This document shows positions 46,465 through 51,806 of a stretch of DNA of 51,806 nucleotides, piece after piece. The notes under the pieces were generated by a model, which did no database searches, was not told the DNA's origin, and saw nothing but the letters and a program-made list of their open reading frames with translations. This DNA is from Verrucomicrobiaceae bacterium (GTDB taxonomy: Bacteria > Verrucomicrobiota > Verrucomicrobiia > Chthoniobacterales > Chthoniobacteraceae): contig SXWH01000080.1 of the NCBI GenBank assembly GCA_005791535.1, positions 1 to 51,806 of the forward strand, written 5' to 3'. The translations under genes and the position numbers were made by a program. The number at the start of each line of letters is the position of its first letter. Position 1 is the first letter of the stretch.

Positions 46465-46521
46465 TCGCGACGCGCAGGATTTTGCTTTTCCGGATCGCGA
46501 GAATGCGCCATCCCTTCGCTG

Positions 46522-46947
46522 ATGAGTAACCCACGCCGCTTCGTCACCGCCGCAGAGAAAGTTGACTTCCAGTCTCCCTGGACGCTGGAGGAATGGCTGT
46601 GCCGTGGCGATGTGGTGGACAACAAGGAATTGCTGATGGTGCGTGCGAATATGGAGCCGCATCGGTGTCATCCGTTCCACTCGCACCCGACGCGCGAGGA
46701 ACTGATTTACATCATCTCCGGCCGCGCGGAGCAGTGGGTGGGTAAGGAGCATCGCATCCTCGGTCCGGGTGAAATGGCGTTCATTCCGATGGGCGAGATT
46801 CACGGGACGTATAATCCATTTAACGAGCGCCTCGTGTTTCTGGCGATCCTGTCGCCATCGAATGCGGCTGAGCCGGGGATTGTCGATTACTCCACGCAGG
46901 AACCGTGGGCATCGCTGCGCGGCCCCGAGTTCCCGCCCTGCACCTAG
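46522..46947 (+). CDS. Cupin-domain protein
   Basis: 141 residues, no signal peptide. A single conserved cupin: motif 1 PFHSHPTREELIYIISG with two metal-binding His and a Glu, and motif 2 GEMAFIPMGEIHG with the third His. The fold can be an enzyme, a sugar-binding protein or a regulator; nothing here decides. It is 95 bp before the lipoprotein gene on the same strand and 57 bp after the giant CotH gene, so it could be part of a longer transcript. Confidence 0.8.
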   Translation: MSNPRRFVTAAEKVDFQSPWTLEEWLCRGDVVDNKELLMVRANMEPHRCHPFHSHPTREELIYIISGRAEQWVGKEHRILGPGEMAFIPMGEIHGTYNPFNERLVFLAILSPSNAAEPGIVDYSTQEPWASLRGPEFPPCT

Positions 46948-47042
46948 GCGCCCTTCGGATCGCTGTGTGCCGGCGGCTTTCCGTCGCAGGCGGCGAGTTT
47001 ATGGTTTCCATCGAAAGCTTCTCCGGCTAATTGCGGCCCGCG

Positions 47043-48431
47043 ATGGCCAAGCGCATTGCTTTACTCACTTTTTTGACGGTGGTTTCGATGACCGCTTGCG
47101 ACCGGAAGCCCGATTCGAAGCCGAGCGGCACACCGCCTGCCGGAGCAACGCCGAAGCCCACTCCGCCGCCGACGCCGCTTCCGACTCCCACACCGACACC
47201 GCCGCCAACCCCAACGCCCGAGCCGACACCGCCGCCAACGCCGTACGTGCCGATGAAGTCTTTGCAAACGGGCACGATTTTTAACGGGGTTACGTTCAAG
47301 GCGAATATCGAAACGACGTTCGGACGGACCGCGACGGTCGAGCGTGAAGATCCCGCGAGCTACACGGTCGAGATGAATGTGCGGGTCAATATCCCGAAGC
47401 CGCACAAAATGCTGCCGGAGCTTGAGAAACTTTCGCCGAACATCGCCAAGCTGCTTCCAGCGCTTCCCGCGATGCTGGAGGCCGCCAAAGTGTCTGCGGA
47501 ATACGACGAACTGTATCGGAACAAAGTGACGTCGCTTCGCTCGAATCTAAACCGGCTCGACTCGATTCTCTCGCGGCACAACTTCTTCGACTGCGAGACC
47601 ATTCTGGAGCTCCAGCATCCGCAAACGAAGCGCAAGGCGGTTCTCGTTCAGGCGGACATGGACGTGGATACGGACGGCTCCGATGGCGACCGCATTGCGA
47701 TTGCCAATACGGGCAATTCGCGGACTTTCCAGCCTTTCACGAGCTACAACTGGCCGAAGCGAACGAAGAATCCGAACCCCGTCGAGGCGATCTGGCAGAA
47801 GCGGATCGCCGAGAACGATGCGAAGATCGCGAAAGCCGAAACTCCGGATGCCGACAAGCAGCGGATGAAGGCGGAGAACAACCGGCTCAAGTCCGAGATT
47901 CGGGATTTGCAAAGCCGCAGTTATCTCTCCGGCGCATTCGACCCGTTCATCGTGCTGCCGATGACGATGTTTGGAAAGAGCCGCACCGGATTTTCGCCTA
48001 CGATTGGTGACTATTGCGTGGTGATTGTGGGCGACATGCTTTATCCCGCCGTCGTGGGTGACGCCGGCCCAATCACCAAGATTGGTGAGGCTTCGCTGCG
48101 GATGTGCCGTGAAATTAATGAACGCTCAAACGGCGGAAACCGTGCTGTGAGCGATTTGAAGGCGACGTACATTGTCTTCACCGGCACCGCCGACAAGCCG
48201 TGGGGGCCGCCGGACTATGTGAAATGGCGCACGCGCTGCGATGCTCTCTTGAAGGAGTTCGGTGGATACACAGGCACGCTCTTCGACTGGCCCGACATCA
48301 CGCGCCTCGCGGTGCCGGAGCCACCAACGCCCGAGACGCCTGCGCCGGGCGGGAATCCCGCCGCACCAGCGCAGCCTCCCGTTGCACCTCCTGCGGCAGC
48401 GCAACCTGTAAAACCGGCACCGCCAAAGTAG
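47043..48431 (+). CDS. Lipoprotein with Pro-rich linker and GH75 chitosanase-like domain
   Basis: 462 residues from the ATG at 47043. A lipoprotein signal ends in the lipobox VSMTAC, so the protein is probably anchored in a membrane. A Thr/Pro-rich linker (about 30-70, runs of PTPTP) follows. The C-terminal half resembles GH75 chitosanases: the acidic segment ADMDVDTDG with Asp205, Asp207, Asp209 and Asp211; PFIVLPMTMFGK; the motif VVGDAGPITKIGEAS at about 337-351, where GDAGP matches the GDTGP of chitosanases; and TYIVFTGTAD. It would cut chitosan or a related amino-sugar polymer. Charged helices (about 255-290) interrupt the fold, so activity is inferred. The tail is Pro/Ala-rich. Confidence 0.65.
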   Translation: MAKRIALLTFLTVVSMTACDRKPDSKPSGTPPAGATPKPTPPPTPLPTPTPTPPPTPTPEPTPPPTPYVPMKSLQTGTIFNGVTFKANIETTFGRTATVEREDPASYTVEMNVRVNIPKPHKMLPELEKLSPNIAKLLPALPAMLEAAKVSAEYDELYRNKVTSLRSNLNRLDSILSRHNFFDCETILELQHPQTKRKAVLVQADMDVDTDGSDGDRIAIANTGNSRTFQPFTSYNWPKRTKNPNPVEAIWQKRIAENDAKIAKAETPDADKQRMKAENNRLKSEIRDLQSRSYLSGAFDPFIVLPMTMFGKSRTGFSPTIGDYCVVIVGDMLYPAVVGDAGPITKIGEASLRMCREINERSNGGNRAVSDLKATYIVFTGTADKPWGPPDYVKWRTRCDALLKEFGGYTGTLFDWPDITRLAVPEPPTPETPAPGGNPAAPAQPPVAPPAAAQPVKPAPPK

Positions 48432-48465
48432 CCGCACAGGTCCGGGAAAGGTGCCGGAGTAAAAG

Positions 48466-48485
48466 TTTGTGAAAAATTTCACAAA
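48466..48485. promoter_or_regulatory. Rex-type redox operator upstream of the ATP synthase operon
   Basis: A perfect inverted repeat TTTGTGAAAAATTTCACAAA: two 9-bp arms around AA. It matches the Rex binding consensus TTGTGAAnnnnTTCACAA at every fixed position (48467-48484). Rex represses respiratory and fermentation genes and leaves DNA when NADH rises. It lies 35 bp after the lipoprotein stop and 148 bp upstream of the atpB start. A weak TTGCAA follows at 48490-48495. Confidence 0.72.
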
Positions 48486-48632
48486 GTACTTGCAACACGT
48501 AAACCGGTGCGCTTTTCTCGCGGCCTGCTTTTGCGGGAGGATGACAAAATTGTCCTCATTCCGGCTCCTACTGACCAAGTCCGCCAGTGTTTGGTGACTG
48601 ACGGAAGCCGCATCGGCAAAGATTTCAGGACA

Positions 48633-49625
48633 ATGCTCGCTTTCTTCCAACGCCGTCATTTTTCCGCCTTCAAAGCGGCGCGCTCGCTCGCGTTCGTTTT
48701 TGTTTTCGTAGCGATGCTCACCGGGCAGGCCTTCGCGGGTGAGGCTGGTGGACATGGCGAAGCGGGCCACGGCGGTCTGCCGCCCGATGCTCCGGTTTTG
48801 TTCCACCTCGGACCGCTCCCCGTGAACAACTCGATGGTTGTAACCTGGATCGTTGCAGCAGTCGTTATCATCGGCGTTCAGCGTGCGATGCGTCGGAAGC
48901 AGGAAGTGCCTTCCGGCGGGCAGAACTTCGTCGAATGGTTGGTTGATGGTCTGCATGGGTTCCTCTCGCAGATCATGGGTCGCGACCTTGCGAAACATAC
49001 GTTCTGGTTCTTCGGTACTGTATTTCTCTTTATTCTCGCCACGAACTGGGCGGGATTGCTCCCCGGAGTTGGGACTATCGGCCTCAGCCCGCAGGAAGTT
49101 GAGGGTTCCCATGTTTTCTCCCATCACATTCAAAAGCCGCTTCTTCGCGGTGGTAATGCGGATCTGAACATGACCTCGGCGATGGCTGTCACCTTCTTTG
49201 TGTGGTGGATCATCTGGGCACTCCAAGCCAATGGACCGGTGGGCTTCTTCAAGCACATTTTCGCGCCGAAAGGAAAGTCCTCCGGCGCCATGAAGATTGC
49301 GATGATTGTTATCTTCGGCATCGTCGGTGTCTTGGAGGTTGTCTCGATTCTTTTCCGTCCCGTCTCTCTCAGCTTCCGTCTCTACGGTAACGTATTCGCC
49401 GGCGAGACAATGCTGGAGTCGATGCAGGCGCTCGTCCCTGCGCTCGGATGGCTCATTCCGGTTCCTTTCTACTTTATGGAGCTTCTCGTCGGCCTTGTGC
49501 AGGCGTTGGTTTTCATGCTTTTGACCTCGGTATTTACGCTCTTGATTTGCGAGCACTCCGATGACCATGGGCACGAAGACCATGGAGAAGGTCACGGCGA
49601 AGGCGATAAGTCGCCGGCCCATTAA
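48633..49625 (+). CDS. atpB: F1Fo ATP synthase subunit a
   Basis: 330 residues from the ATG at 48633, preceded by AGGA; an in-frame GTG at 48507 would only add 42 unlikely residues. The proton-channel half is typical: TFWFFGTVFLFILATNWAGL, and the essential Arg in LFRPVSLSFRLYGNVFAGE, then FMELLVGLVQALVFMLLTSVFT. The N-terminus looks like a cleavable signal peptide (LAFVFVFVAMLTGQAFAGEA) followed by a Gly/His-rich stretch, and the C-terminus ends in a His/Asp/Glu-rich tail; both are extra to the E. coli protein. First gene of the atp operon; no atpI is seen upstream. Confidence 0.95.
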   Translation: MLAFFQRRHFSAFKAARSLAFVFVFVAMLTGQAFAGEAGGHGEAGHGGLPPDAPVLFHLGPLPVNNSMVVTWIVAAVVIIGVQRAMRRKQEVPSGGQNFVEWLVDGLHGFLSQIMGRDLAKHTFWFFGTVFLFILATNWAGLLPGVGTIGLSPQEVEGSHVFSHHIQKPLLRGGNADLNMTSAMAVTFFVWWIIWALQANGPVGFFKHIFAPKGKSSGAMKIAMIVIFGIVGVLEVVSILFRPVSLSFRLYGNVFAGETMLESMQALVPALGWLIPVPFYFMELLVGLVQALVFMLLTSVFTLLICEHSDDHGHEDHGEGHGEGDKSPAH

Positions 49626-49704
49626 CAGATTTCGTCCATCGGACCGTGGCAAGACTGCGGGGGTGGACGGGAAAAACAAAACATAACATAAACTAACACA
49701 CACT

Positions 49705-49929
49705 ATGCTCAGCATTCTTGCTTCAGAAACAGCAGTGTCGGGTAATCTGCACATCGGTCTCGCGGCTCTCGGAGCGGCGATCGGCGTGGGTATTATCGGT
49801 ATGAAGGCCGCAGAAGCGACGGGACGCAATCCCGGCGCAGCGGGCGACATCCGGAATATCTCGATCATCCTGGCGGCGCTCGTCGAAGGTATCGTGTTCT
49901 TCGCGATCTTCCTCGCGAAAGGCCAGTAA
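49705..49929 (+). CDS. atpE: F1Fo ATP synthase subunit c
   Basis: 74 residues, two membrane helices joined by the RNPGAAGD loop. Helix 1 is Gly-rich (GAAIGVGIIGMKAAEATGRNP) and helix 2 carries the ion-binding Glu in ALVEGIVFF. There is no Gln in the helix-1 ion site and the Glu is followed by Gly, not Ser or Thr, so it is predicted to carry protons, not sodium. It is 79 bp after atpB. No clear ribosome-binding site; the leader is A/C-rich (ACACACT). Confidence 0.95.
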   Translation: MLSILASETAVSGNLHIGLAALGAAIGVGIIGMKAAEATGRNPGAAGDIRNISIILAALVEGIVFFAIFLAKGQ

Positions 49930-49935
49930 TCCTTA

Positions 49936-49963
49936 TTGCGCGGAGTCTCCGGACTCCGCGCAA
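49936..49963 (+). promoter_or_regulatory. Intercistronic stem-loop between atpE and atpF
   Basis: A perfect 12-bp stem, TTGCGCGGAGTC at 49936-49947 and its complement at 49952-49963, with a TCCG loop, starting 6 bp after the atpE stop. There is no U-tract. A stem here would protect the atpBE part of the mRNA from 3' decay or cause partial termination, raising subunit c output over the downstream subunits, as the c-ring needs about ten copies. Confidence 0.65.
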
Positions 49964-49986
49964 CCAATTTTCCAAATTCAGTCGCA

Positions 49987-50541
49987 ATGTCTCTCACACT
50001 ATTTTTTGCAACGGCCGTAGAAGCTGCCTCGAAAACGGCGGAAAAATCGCTCACTGAAGTGTTCGGATGGAATCCATGGGCGTTCCTTTCGCAGGTGATA
50101 AGCTTCTCGATCGTATGCGGCCTGCTCTACAAGTTCGCCTACAATCCGGTTCTGTCGATGCTCGAGCAGCGTCGCTTGAAGATCGAGGAAGGTCTCGCGG
50201 GTGCCGAGAAAATCAAAGCGCAACTCGCTGACGCAACGAAAGCGGCCGAGGAGATTCGCGCCAAAGCAAACGCGGACGCCCAGAAGACAATCGCAGAGGC
50301 TCAGGCCGCCGCAAAAGCAATCACCGAGCGTGAAGGACAGCGCGCTGTTGCGCAGGCTGCGGACATCATCCAGAAGGCCCGCGAAGCCGGTGAAGCCGAG
50401 CAGAAGCGTCTCATGGCAGAACTGCGCAAGGACCTCAGCCGTCTCATCGTCGATACGACGGCCAAAGTCACCGGCAAGGCTCTTACCGCGGCCGATCAAG
50501 CCGCGATTACCGAGGCCGCCAACAAGGAACTCGCCGCCTAA
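49987..50541 (+). CDS. atpF: F1Fo ATP synthase subunit b
   Basis: 184 residues from the ATG at 49987; an in-frame upstream extension to 49936 would put the stem-loop inside the gene and is rejected. One N-terminal membrane helix (WAFLSQVISFSIVCGLLYKFAY) is followed by a long, Ala/Lys/Glu/Gln-rich coiled coil (about 65-170), the peripheral stalk that holds F1 to Fo. Third gene of the operon; only 3 bp separate its stop from atpH. Confidence 0.93.
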   Translation: MSLTLFFATAVEAASKTAEKSLTEVFGWNPWAFLSQVISFSIVCGLLYKFAYNPVLSMLEQRRLKIEEGLAGAEKIKAQLADATKAAEEIRAKANADAQKTIAEAQAAAKAITEREGQRAVAQAADIIQKAREAGEAEQKRLMAELRKDLSRLIVDTTAKVTGKALTAADQAAITEAANKELAA

Positions 50542-50544
50542 GCG

Positions 50545-50943
50545 ATGAAACTCTCCAAAGAGTCACGCAAACTCTCGAAAGACTTGCTCCGCGCAAGCTT
50601 CACCAATGGCCTCCTTGATGGGGCCAAGGTGAAAAAGGTGACGGATGCCGTGGTGGAATCCAAGCCGCGTAATTATATCGGCGTTCTGAAGGAGTTCTCC
50701 CGTTTGATTCGCCTCGAAGTTGCCAAGCGCCACGCCATCATCGAAAGCGCCGCGGCTTTGAGCGATGGCGAGAAGTCTAAAATCACTGCAACGATCCAAG
50801 CCAAGTATGGTGCGGATGTGACAGCCGAATTCAAAATCAATGCTGCGCTCATCGGCGGCTTGCGTGTCCAGGTGGGCAGCAATGTCCTCGATGCATCCGT
50901 CCGCAGCCGACTGGACCGACTTGCGACCGAACTCGCAGCTTAA
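50545..50943 (+). CDS. atpH: F1Fo ATP synthase subunit delta (short form)
   Basis: 132 residues, against about 175-180 for E. coli delta. The C-terminal half fits the family (ESAAALSDGEKSKITATI, then INAALIGGLRVQVGSNVLDASV, typical of delta C-termini). The N-terminal helical bundle that binds the F1 crown appears shortened. It lies between atpF and atpA, which fixes the identity. It connects the peripheral stalk to F1. Confidence 0.88.
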   Translation: MKLSKESRKLSKDLLRASFTNGLLDGAKVKKVTDAVVESKPRNYIGVLKEFSRLIRLEVAKRHAIIESAAALSDGEKSKITATIQAKYGADVTAEFKINAALIGGLRVQVGSNVLDASVRSRLDRLATELAA

Positions 50944-50982
50944 ACACTAAATTTCAATCTCCACTTTTAACTACCATTCCGC

Positions 50983-51806
50983 ATGAGCAGCATCCTGCAA
51001 GAACTCGAAGCAAAAATCTCCGGACTCAAAACCGGCACCACAAAATCAAACGTCGGCATTGTCCGTGAAGTCGGCGACGGCGTCGCGAAGATCGAAGGTC
51101 TGAGCGATGTCATGCTCAACGAAATGCTTGAGTTCCCAGGCGGCGTTTACGGCCTGGCGCTCAACCTTGAAGAGAACGAAGTCGGCGCGGTGTTGCTTGG
51201 CGACGACAAGGGCGTGACCGAAGGAAGCGAAGTCAAGACCACGGGTCGTCTTCTCTCCGTGCCGGTCGGCAAGGGACTTCTCGGACGCGTCGTCAACACG
51301 CTCGGTCAGCCGGTTGACGGCAAAGGCCCAATCGAGGCCGCGGCGCAGTATCCGGTTGAGAAGATCGCTCCCGGCATCATCAAGCGTCAGTCGGTGAACC
51401 AGCCGGTGCAAACGGGCATCATGGCAATCGACGCGATGATTCCAAGCGGCCGCGGACAGCGTGAGCTGATCATCGGTGACCGTGCGACCGGCAAAACGAC
51501 CATCGCAATCGACGCAATCATCAATCAGGGCCGAATCAACAAGGCGAATGAGGGCAAACCCGGCTTCCGTCCGCTTTACAGCATCTACGTTGCGGTCGGT
51601 CAGAAGCAATCGAACGTGGCTCGCAATATCGCCGTTCTCGAAGAAACCGGCGCGATGCAATACACGATCATCGTGGTTGCTTCGGCGTCGGACATGGCAT
51701 CCATGCAGTATCTCGCTCCGTTCGCCGGCGCGGCAATGGGTGAGTGGTTCATGGACAACGGAATGGACGCACTCATCGTATTTGATGACCTTTCCAAGCA
51801 AGCGGT
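50983..51806 (+). CDS. atpA: F1Fo ATP synthase subunit alpha, 3' end cut by the window edge
   Basis: The ATG at 50983 begins a frame open to the last base, giving 274 residues. The family regions are clear: [68 protein letters not shown], and the nucleotide loop [15 protein letters not shown]. In the P-loop the usual Gln (GDRQTGKT) is Ala here, which is known from some bacteria. Then [12 protein letters not shown] and [12 protein letters not shown]. Forty bases after atpH; no Shine-Dalgarno visible. Confidence 0.95.

What the first reader, a model, noticed from the sequence alone, without database searches (positions are those of the whole stretch)
48466..48485. Perfect Rex operator upstream of the ATP synthase operon
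TTTGTGAAAAATTTCACAAA is a perfect palindrome that matches the Rex consensus TTGTGAAnnnnTTCACAA at all fixed positions, 148 bp before atpB. A 20-bp match of this kind is very unlikely by chance and it lies between two genes. It suggests that the NADH/NAD+ ratio controls ATP synthase expression in a verrucomicrobial-type bacterium, where Rex regulons are little described.
Basis: partly seen in the sequence, partly recalled or inferred. Interest (0 to 1): 0.72.

Follow-up and report, generated by a model that had tools for sequence, protein, structure and literature searches.

The report
NADH-sensor switch before ATP synthase
A short DNA switch in front of the ATP synthase genes of a verrucomicrobial bacterium very probably binds the NADH sensor Rex, and near-identical switches stand in front of many other respiratory genes in this bacterium and its relatives.

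Summary
TTGTGAAAAATTTCACAA (48467-48484) matches all 14 fixed Rex-consensus positions; it is not a perfect palindrome (central A/A pair). About 0.005 exact matches are expected in the 5.16-Mb genome; seven exist, all nearest to respiratory or quinone genes: atpB, nuoB, nuoD, nuoEF, an alternative-complex-III-like operon, mqnE, a polyprenyl diphosphate synthase. One rex gene was found. In 117 genomes of the order, site and rex co-occur (44 both, 64 neither, 9 discordant); 143 of 147 sites lie at such genes, atpB most often (43). In a rex-less family, 10 of 13 atpB loci keep a similar promoter without operator. CRP does not follow the site.

Rex control of ATP synthase is known from Streptomyces: a new member of a known kind. 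Searches found no paper on Verrucomicrobiota. Unexpected: quinone genes among the targets, and two geometries: 5-8 or 15-17 nt before a -35-like word (94 of 97 sites), or containing a probable GTG start codon. Binding, repression and NADH response are inferred.

The parts
48467..48484 (.).
   Evidence: Exact match at the 14 fixed consensus positions; 7 exact copies in the genome, all nearest to respiratory or quinone genes; co-occurs with rex in the order.
48490..48495 (+). -35-like box TTGCAA, 5 nt after the operator
   Evidence: By position; a CTTG[CTA] or TTG[CTA]C word follows the operator at 5-8 or 15-17 nt in 94 of 97 atp, act and nuo sites. The generic sigma-70 scan, with stricter rules, reported no promoter here.
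48513..48518 (+). -10-like box TTTTCT, 17 nt after the -35-like box; transcription start expected near 48525
   Evidence: By position and comparison with relatives; inferred.
48633..49625 (+). atpB, F0 subunit a
   Evidence: PF00119, E 3.8e-43, on the longer ORF from 48507
49705..49929 (+). atpE, F0 subunit c
   Evidence: PF00137, E 6.5e-11
49987..50541 (+). atpF, F0 subunit b
   Evidence: PF00430, E 1.2e-20
50545..50943 (+). atpH, delta subunit, only 132 aa
   Evidence: PF00213, matched over profile positions 68-172 of 172
50983..51806 (+). atpA, alpha subunit, cut by the window end
   Evidence: PF00006 and PF02874

Best explanation
The site is the operator of the NADH-sensing repressor Rex at the promoter of the ATP synthase operon. 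Rex is known as a homodimer with a winged-helix DNA-binding domain and a Rossmann domain. At low NADH it should sit on the operator, about -58 to -41 from the inferred start point, next to the -35 region, and hold RNA polymerase off. When respiration lags and NADH rises, Rex should let go and atpBEFHA... be transcribed. The same operator stands before complex I genes, an alternative-complex-III-like operon, mqnE and a polyprenyl diphosphate synthase, so one signal would tune the chain, its quinone and the ATP synthase together. Shown here, by sequence: the site, the rex gene, their co-occurrence, the target set, the conserved position before a promoter-like pair. Inferred: binding by this Rex, repression rather than activation, the NADH response, the transcription start.
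For: Seven exact sites in the genome against about 0.005 expected. One Rex, over the cut-off of six NCBIfam Rex models, aligned over residues 6-204 with the Thermus Rex structures 3IKT and 1XCB, with the segment RKDL-YFG--GTRG-GY kept; the NAD contacts Ala94 and Tyr98 of T. aquaticus Rex (named in PMC8063818, passages seen) align with Ala97 and Tyr101 by my own count. Rex and exact site in 117 genomes of the order: 44 both, 3 rex only, 6 site only, 64 neither, Fisher p 6e-22, not corrected for relatedness. In 100 genomes of other orders of the class, counted by hand: 19, 1, 2, 78 (p 3e-17). 143 of 147 sites are within -80 to +520 bp of a respiratory or quinone gene, 43 of them atpB. Family f8 has no rex and no site, and 10 of its 13 atpB loci fetched keep a CTTGTCA promoter-like pair without the operator. 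The consensus is the stated general Rex consensus (PMC5317091, passages), and Rex binds and represses atpIBEFHAGDC and nuoA1-N1 in Streptomyces avermitilis (PMC5355995, passages).
Against: No binding or expression data. Six genomes have a site but no rex: five (G021, G046, G052, G063, G086) are drafts of 89-95% completeness with a site at atpB, and a second search with the own Rex found none either; G006 has one site away from any labelled gene. Three have rex and no exact site (G014, G053, G098); G041 has rex and a site at the polyprenyl synthase but none at atpB; G040 has only a 3-mismatch site at atpB. In other classes of the phylum rex is common (179 of 227 at E<=0.001, by subtraction) but the exact site is rare (7 of 227, one each), so the wiring is not phylum-wide. 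The operator lies upstream of the -35-like box, not over the promoter core, which is not the plainest place for a repressor. In S. avermitilis atpI fell under oxygen limitation in wild type and rex mutant alike, so a rise in NADH need not raise atp expression overall.
Confidence: 0.93

Rival explanations
1. The site is bound by a CRP/FNR-family regulator, whose core TGTGA-N6-TCACA (recalled for CRP) the sequence also fits.
For: The 18-mer contains TGTGA-AAAATT-TCACA. The S. aureus Rex paper used the motif TGTGAn6TCACA and says that ArcR, a Crp/Fnr protein, can bind a motif similar to Crp sites (PMC2883068, passages). The own genome has 10 matches to the cNMP-binding domain PF00027, and 56 of 117 genomes of the order have PF13545 over cut-off, site-bearing ones such as G015, G032, G083 and G108 among them.
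Against: The own genome has one PF13545 match, 22.9 bits against a cut-off of 27; the genome is 86.6% complete, and PF00325 was not tested. In the order PF13545 does not follow the site: G005, G066, G088, G041, G072, G078, G092, G104, G013, G033 and G046 have sites and no match, while rex-less f8 genomes such as G008, G064, G095, G099, G111 and G115 have strong matches and no site. Rex does follow the site.
Confidence: 0.03
2. It is a Rex operator, but Rex bound there activates the atp, nuo and act promoters, or acts by contact with RNA polymerase, rather than by simple occlusion.
For: The gap from operator to the first -35-like word is 5-8 nt in 83 of 97 sites and 15-17 nt in 11; none at 9-14, 3 without a word. 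The two groups are about one helical turn apart, as position on one face of the helix would give. The long gap occurs in f13 and in single genomes G092 (f1), G002 (f3) and G029 (f9).
Against: Six of the 11 long gaps are from one family (f13), so independent shifts are few; the word is short and the first match is taken; a scored version put one AtpB gap at 10, two ActA gaps at 25 and one NuoD gap at 1. At the polyprenyl synthase the operator lies just after a -10-like box, where repression is the natural action, and opposite control of quinone and complexes makes little sense. In S. avermitilis, the one case that I saw with these targets, Rex represses them.
Confidence: 0.1
3. A chance palindrome or a structural element (terminator, attenuator) with no regulator.
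For: It lies between two genes, where A+T-rich palindromes are not rare (general knowledge).
Against: It stands before atpB in 43 genomes, with near-random upstream flanks in the 19 family genomes compared; no Rfam match at the gathering score in 46500-51806; the one terminator-like hit in 48350-48760 is elsewhere, 48677-48694, and no more than shuffles give; the same letters recur before different operons.
Confidence: 0.01

Closest known systems
Rex regulon of Streptomyces avermitilis (atpIBEFHAGDC, cydA1B1CD, nuoA1-N1, ndh2, hppA, rex-hemAC1DB; PMC5355995, passages seen)
   Same: Same consensus; ATP synthase, complex I, NDH-2 and cytochrome bd among the targets; aerobic respiration as the theme.
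   Different: There the protected region at atpI is -50 to -22 and includes the -35 region, its site has two departures from consensus, and the rex promoter itself is bound. Here the operator ends 5 nt before the -35-like box and matches fully; no site with 3 or fewer mismatches lies within 300 bp (less at contig ends) before rex in 34 rex loci, 32 distinct genes, of the order; an alternative-complex-III-like operon, mqnE and a polyprenyl synthase are targets.
Rex operator of Staphylococcus aureus, TTGTGAAW4TTCACAA (PMC2883068, passages seen)
   Same: Same letters; the centre is AAAT or ATTT in 73 of the 147 sites here.
   Different: Targets named in the passages are anaerobic genes such as adhE, ddh, ald1 and nirC; 'ATP synthase' does not occur in its main text.
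Ravcheev et al. 2012, comparative Rex regulons (J Bacteriol 194:1145; not held; known by recall and through passages in PMC5317091 and PMC4215793)
   Same: General consensus TTGTGAANNNNTTCACAA; repression at low NADH/NAD+.
   Different: I could not check whether it covers Verrucomicrobiota or ATP synthase.

Membership tests
Rex operator | TTGTGAA-N4-TTCACAA with no or few mismatches | tested here: met
   14 of 14 fixed positions
Rex operator | A Rex repressor in the same genome | tested here: met
   One locus, PF06971 64.8 bits; NCBIfam NF003993 245.3 bits against 217, and NF003995, NF003992, NF003996, NF003994, NF003989 over their cut-offs
Rex operator | Site in a promoter region, conserved in relatives with rex | tested here: met
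   38 of 47 rex-bearing genomes of the order have an exact site at atpB. Of the other 9, G004, G059 and G071 gave no atpB hit, G031's atpB lies at a contig start, and G014, G040, G041, G053 and G098 lack an exact site there
Rex operator | Specific binding by Rex | not testable with these tools
   Needs gel shift or footprint
Rex operator | Release by NADH | not testable with these tools
   Needs binding assays; only aligned NAD-contact residues can be pointed to
Rex regulon | Several NADH-linked energy genes under the same operator | tested here: met
   Seven sites, nearest labelled genes all respiratory or quinone genes; the nuoEF site is 456 bp away
Rex regulon | Autoregulation of rex (common, not universal; recalled, and seen for S. 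avermitilis) | tested here: not met
   0 of 34 rex loci (32 distinct genes) of the order with 3 or fewer mismatches in up to 300 bp; two genomes of other classes, G170 and G274, have an exact site about 40 bp before rex
CRP/FNR site | A CRP/FNR regulator that follows the site | tested here: not met
   PF13545; PF00325 not tested

The most novel reading that the evidence does not exclude
In this class of bacteria Rex uses one operator in two fixed geometries. At the large respiratory operons it sits at a set helical phase upstream of the -35 box and works through contact with RNA polymerase, possibly as an activator at low NADH. At the polyprenyl synthase and some mqnE genes the operator lies on the transcription start, and its own letters GTG are the start codon of a leaderless mRNA, so that one 18-bp stretch is both repressor site and translation start.
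Probability: 0.15. Interest if true: 0.75.

Novelty: new member of a known kind. Interest (0 to 1): 0.5.

Why it matters
If right, one NADH-responsive repressor sets the level of much of the aerobic chain (complex I, an alternative complex III, NDH-2 or oxidases in some lineages, menaquinone genes, ATP synthase) across several orders of a class of bacteria for which my searches found no described Rex regulon. It gives a list of targets, a natural rex-less control family with similar promoters, and makes testable how Rex acts from an upstream position and from on top of a start codon.

Tried and rejected
CRP/FNR as the binder: rejected on distribution. Terminator, attenuator or known RNA element: no support. 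Perfect palindrome: corrected. Of the 16 further places with 1 or 2 mismatches in the own genome, the six that I placed (C25:9204, C40:23109, C54:3621, C251:43007, C165:5922, C279:20174) fall inside mechanical ORFs; the other ten were not examined. The C30 site was first labelled with a nucleoside/H+ symporter and then with mqnE, which starts 9 bp away on the other strand; the symporter gene is also near, so either or both may be controlled. nuoA near rex, seen in the own genome, is not general: 2 of 34 rex loci with flanks of about 1.5 kb. Rex autoregulation: not found in the order. The generic sigma-70 scan did not report the proposed promoter. Papers: searches (Rex, redox-sensing, regulon, Verrucomicrobia; redox-sensing transcriptional repressor Rex, Verrucomicrobi; Rex repressor, menaquinone biosynthesis, operator) returned 0 papers; one search (Rex, alternative complex III, NADH) returned 2, whose Rex passages concern a hydrogenase cluster and sulfate reduction; search 50 (Verrucomicrobia regulons in general) matched 425 papers on four of five terms, of which only the 12 listed titles were seen; searches gave listings only, apart from the papers cited. 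The library holds openly licensed PMC papers only.

Full report
What is there. The 20-mer is at 48466-48485. Its core, 48467-48484, matches TTGTGAAnnnnTTCACAA at all fixed positions. It is a near-palindrome with one A/A pair in the centre. The core lies 35 bp after a GH75-like ORF (PF07335) and the 20-mer 148 bp before the probable ATG of atpB; atpE, atpF, atpH and atpA follow on the same strand. With the window's base composition about 0.005 exact matches are expected in 5.16 Mb; the own genome has 7.

The seven sites. By tblastn with own-genome proteins and by Pfam and NCBIfam they stand before: an operon that begins with a multihaem cytochrome and a 1083-aa Fe-S protein (C15; TIGR04519 over cut-off, QrcA and QrcC models below theirs; I call it alternative complex III, ActA-ActB, from recalled architecture); mqnE (C30; TIGR03700 442.1 bits against 434.55), with a nucleoside/H+ symporter on the other side; atpB (C40, the window); nuoB-nuoC (C99); a nuoE-nuoF fusion (C111); a polyprenyl diphosphate synthase (C145; PF00348 E 2.7e-67; all NCBIfam chain-length models below cut-off); nuoD (C280). 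The NuoB, NuoC and NuoD names rest on reading the sequences and on the tblastn families of relatives, not on a profile search. The nuoEF site is 456 bp from its gene, so a small gene between cannot be excluded.

The regulator. One locus matches the Rex N-terminal domain (C183). The 206-aa protein passes six NCBIfam Rex cut-offs and aligns over residues 6-204 with Thermus Rex structures. It lies beside a tRNA-Leu gene and, in the own genome, near nuoA (PF00507); nuoA is in only 2 of 34 rex loci searched.

Relatives in the order. Of 117 genomes, 50 have an exact site and 47 have rex: 44 both, 3 rex only, 6 site only, 64 neither (Fisher p 6e-22, relatedness not corrected). A second search with the own Rex protein in the nine discordant genomes found rex in the three and in none of the six. 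All 147 sites of the 50 genomes were labelled by the nearest reference gene within -80 to +520 bp: AtpB 43, NuoD 25, polyprenyl synthase 23, ActA 20, MqnE 15, NuoEF 7, NDH-2 7, NuoB 2, CydA 1, none 4. The reference set was drawn from genes found at these sites, MqnE, CydA and NDH-2 being added after a first round left sites unlabelled, so the labels describe the sites and are not a blind test. Six of the seven NDH-2 sites (G003, G009, G029, G033, G040, G101) also lie before nuoD on the other side and are counted once. 38 of the 47 rex-bearing genomes have the site at atpB. The other nine: G004, G059 and G071 gave no atpB hit; G031's hit starts at a contig end; G040 has a 3-mismatch site; G041, G014, G053 and G098 have nothing better than 4 mismatches.

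Controls. In the 19 family-f1 genomes with the atpB site, the 60 bp upstream have mean pairwise identity 0.26-0.32; the fixed operator positions are 1.0 by selection, but the four free central positions are 0.73 and the next 11 bases 0.56-0.62. Of the 30 atpB loci fetched, 15 of 16 from rex-bearing genomes have an exact site, and of the 14 from rex-less genomes the best has 3 mismatches. 11 of these 14 keep a promoter-like pair (10 CTTGTCA, in f8; one CTTGCCA, in G010); G037, G103 and G107 gave none at that score. G010 has TTATGAAAAATTTTATAA 7 nt before the box, which looks like a decayed operator. Three named verrucomicrobial loci (L089, Prosthecobacter debontii MAG, AtpB 80% identical; L090 and L091, 70%) all have the exact site; the other seven loci of that search, at 24-35% identity, were not examined for it. 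The Crp-type HTH PF13545 does not follow the site.

Wider. Of 337 genomes of the phylum, 100 belong to other orders of the class: 19 with rex and site, 1 rex only (G404), 2 site only (G185, G315, one site each), 78 neither (hand count; four weak rex matches, E 1.0e-4 to 9.4e-4, were taken as below the family cut-off, which the tallies of 206 and 201 bear out). In G427, G362, G365 and G430 I read 19 of their 20 sites: AtpB 3, ActA 4, NuoD 3, NuoB 3, NDH-2 2, NuoG 2 (one by NCBIfam below its cut-off, one by resemblance), polyprenyl synthase 1, CoxB 1 (over cut-off). Among single loci of other genomes, L261 is CoxA-like (below cut-off, cut by the locus end; L262 by resemblance) and L263 NuoG-like. 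In the other classes rex is common (179 of 227, by subtraction) but the exact site is rare (7 of 227): two of the seven stand about 40 bp before rex itself (G170, G274), two have a NuoEF-like gene 437-530 bp away at 27% identity, and three have no label; nor have the single sites of G185 and G315.

Geometry. For the 97 sites labelled atp, act or nuo, the first CTTG[CTA] or TTG[CTA]C word after the operator begins (at its TTG) after 5 nt (27), 6 (14), 7 (37), 8 (5), 15 (6), 16 (4), 17 (1); 3 have none within 30 nt. The six at 15 match family f13. A scored search gave the same picture with a few outliers: one AtpB at 10, two ActA at 25, one NuoD at 1. In the window the box is TTGCAA 48490-48495, then 17 nt, then TTTTCT 48513-48518. 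For the polyprenyl synthase a TTGA-type pair ends 3-7 nt before the operator in 21 of 23 sites, and the GTG inside TTGTGAA lies in the open frame of the gene in all 23; 12 of 23 have no in-frame start upstream of it, 6 have none in the next 35 codons, one (G094) has neither. The start codon is therefore probable, not proved. Nine mqnE sites (eight of f5, one of f3) show the same overlap; in the other six the start appears to lie after the operator.

How it most likely works. Rex holds these promoters down at low NADH, and NADH removes it. Repression is the known action on the same gene classes in S. avermitilis (PMC5355995, passages). The spacing leaves room for contact-based action or activation, which I rate at about one in ten.

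What is known. Rex, this consensus, and ATP synthase as a Rex target are known. Searches found no account for Verrucomicrobiota, but the main comparative paper (Ravcheev 2012) was not held, so I do not claim that none exists.

Noticed in passing
L022 6320-6337 and homologous sites (L100, L106, L115, L129, L180 and others): The Rex operator contains the probable GTG start of a polyprenyl diphosphate synthase, with a promoter-like pair just upstream: a possible leaderless mRNA whose start codon is part of the operator.
   Followed up: partly
L036 (G010), about 137 bp before the aligned start of AtpB: TTATGAAAAATTTTATAA at the operator position in a genome without a rex match: a decayed operator or the site of another regulator.
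   Followed up: no
L239/L286 (G170) and L238 (G274): In two genomes of other classes the exact site lies about 40 bp before rex, suggesting autoregulation there, unlike in the rex loci searched in the window's order.
   Followed up: partly
window 50545-50943: atpH (delta) is only 132 aa and matches PF00213 over positions 68-172 only, so its N-terminal part is short or missing.
   Followed up: no
window 47031-48431: Protein with a proline/threonine-rich N-terminal stretch and a GH75 (chitosanase) domain directly upstream of the atp operon.
   Followed up: no
G098 C124 (L201, L202): Two divergent rex-like genes side by side (37% and 34% identical to the own Rex) and no exact site in that genome.
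   Followed up: no
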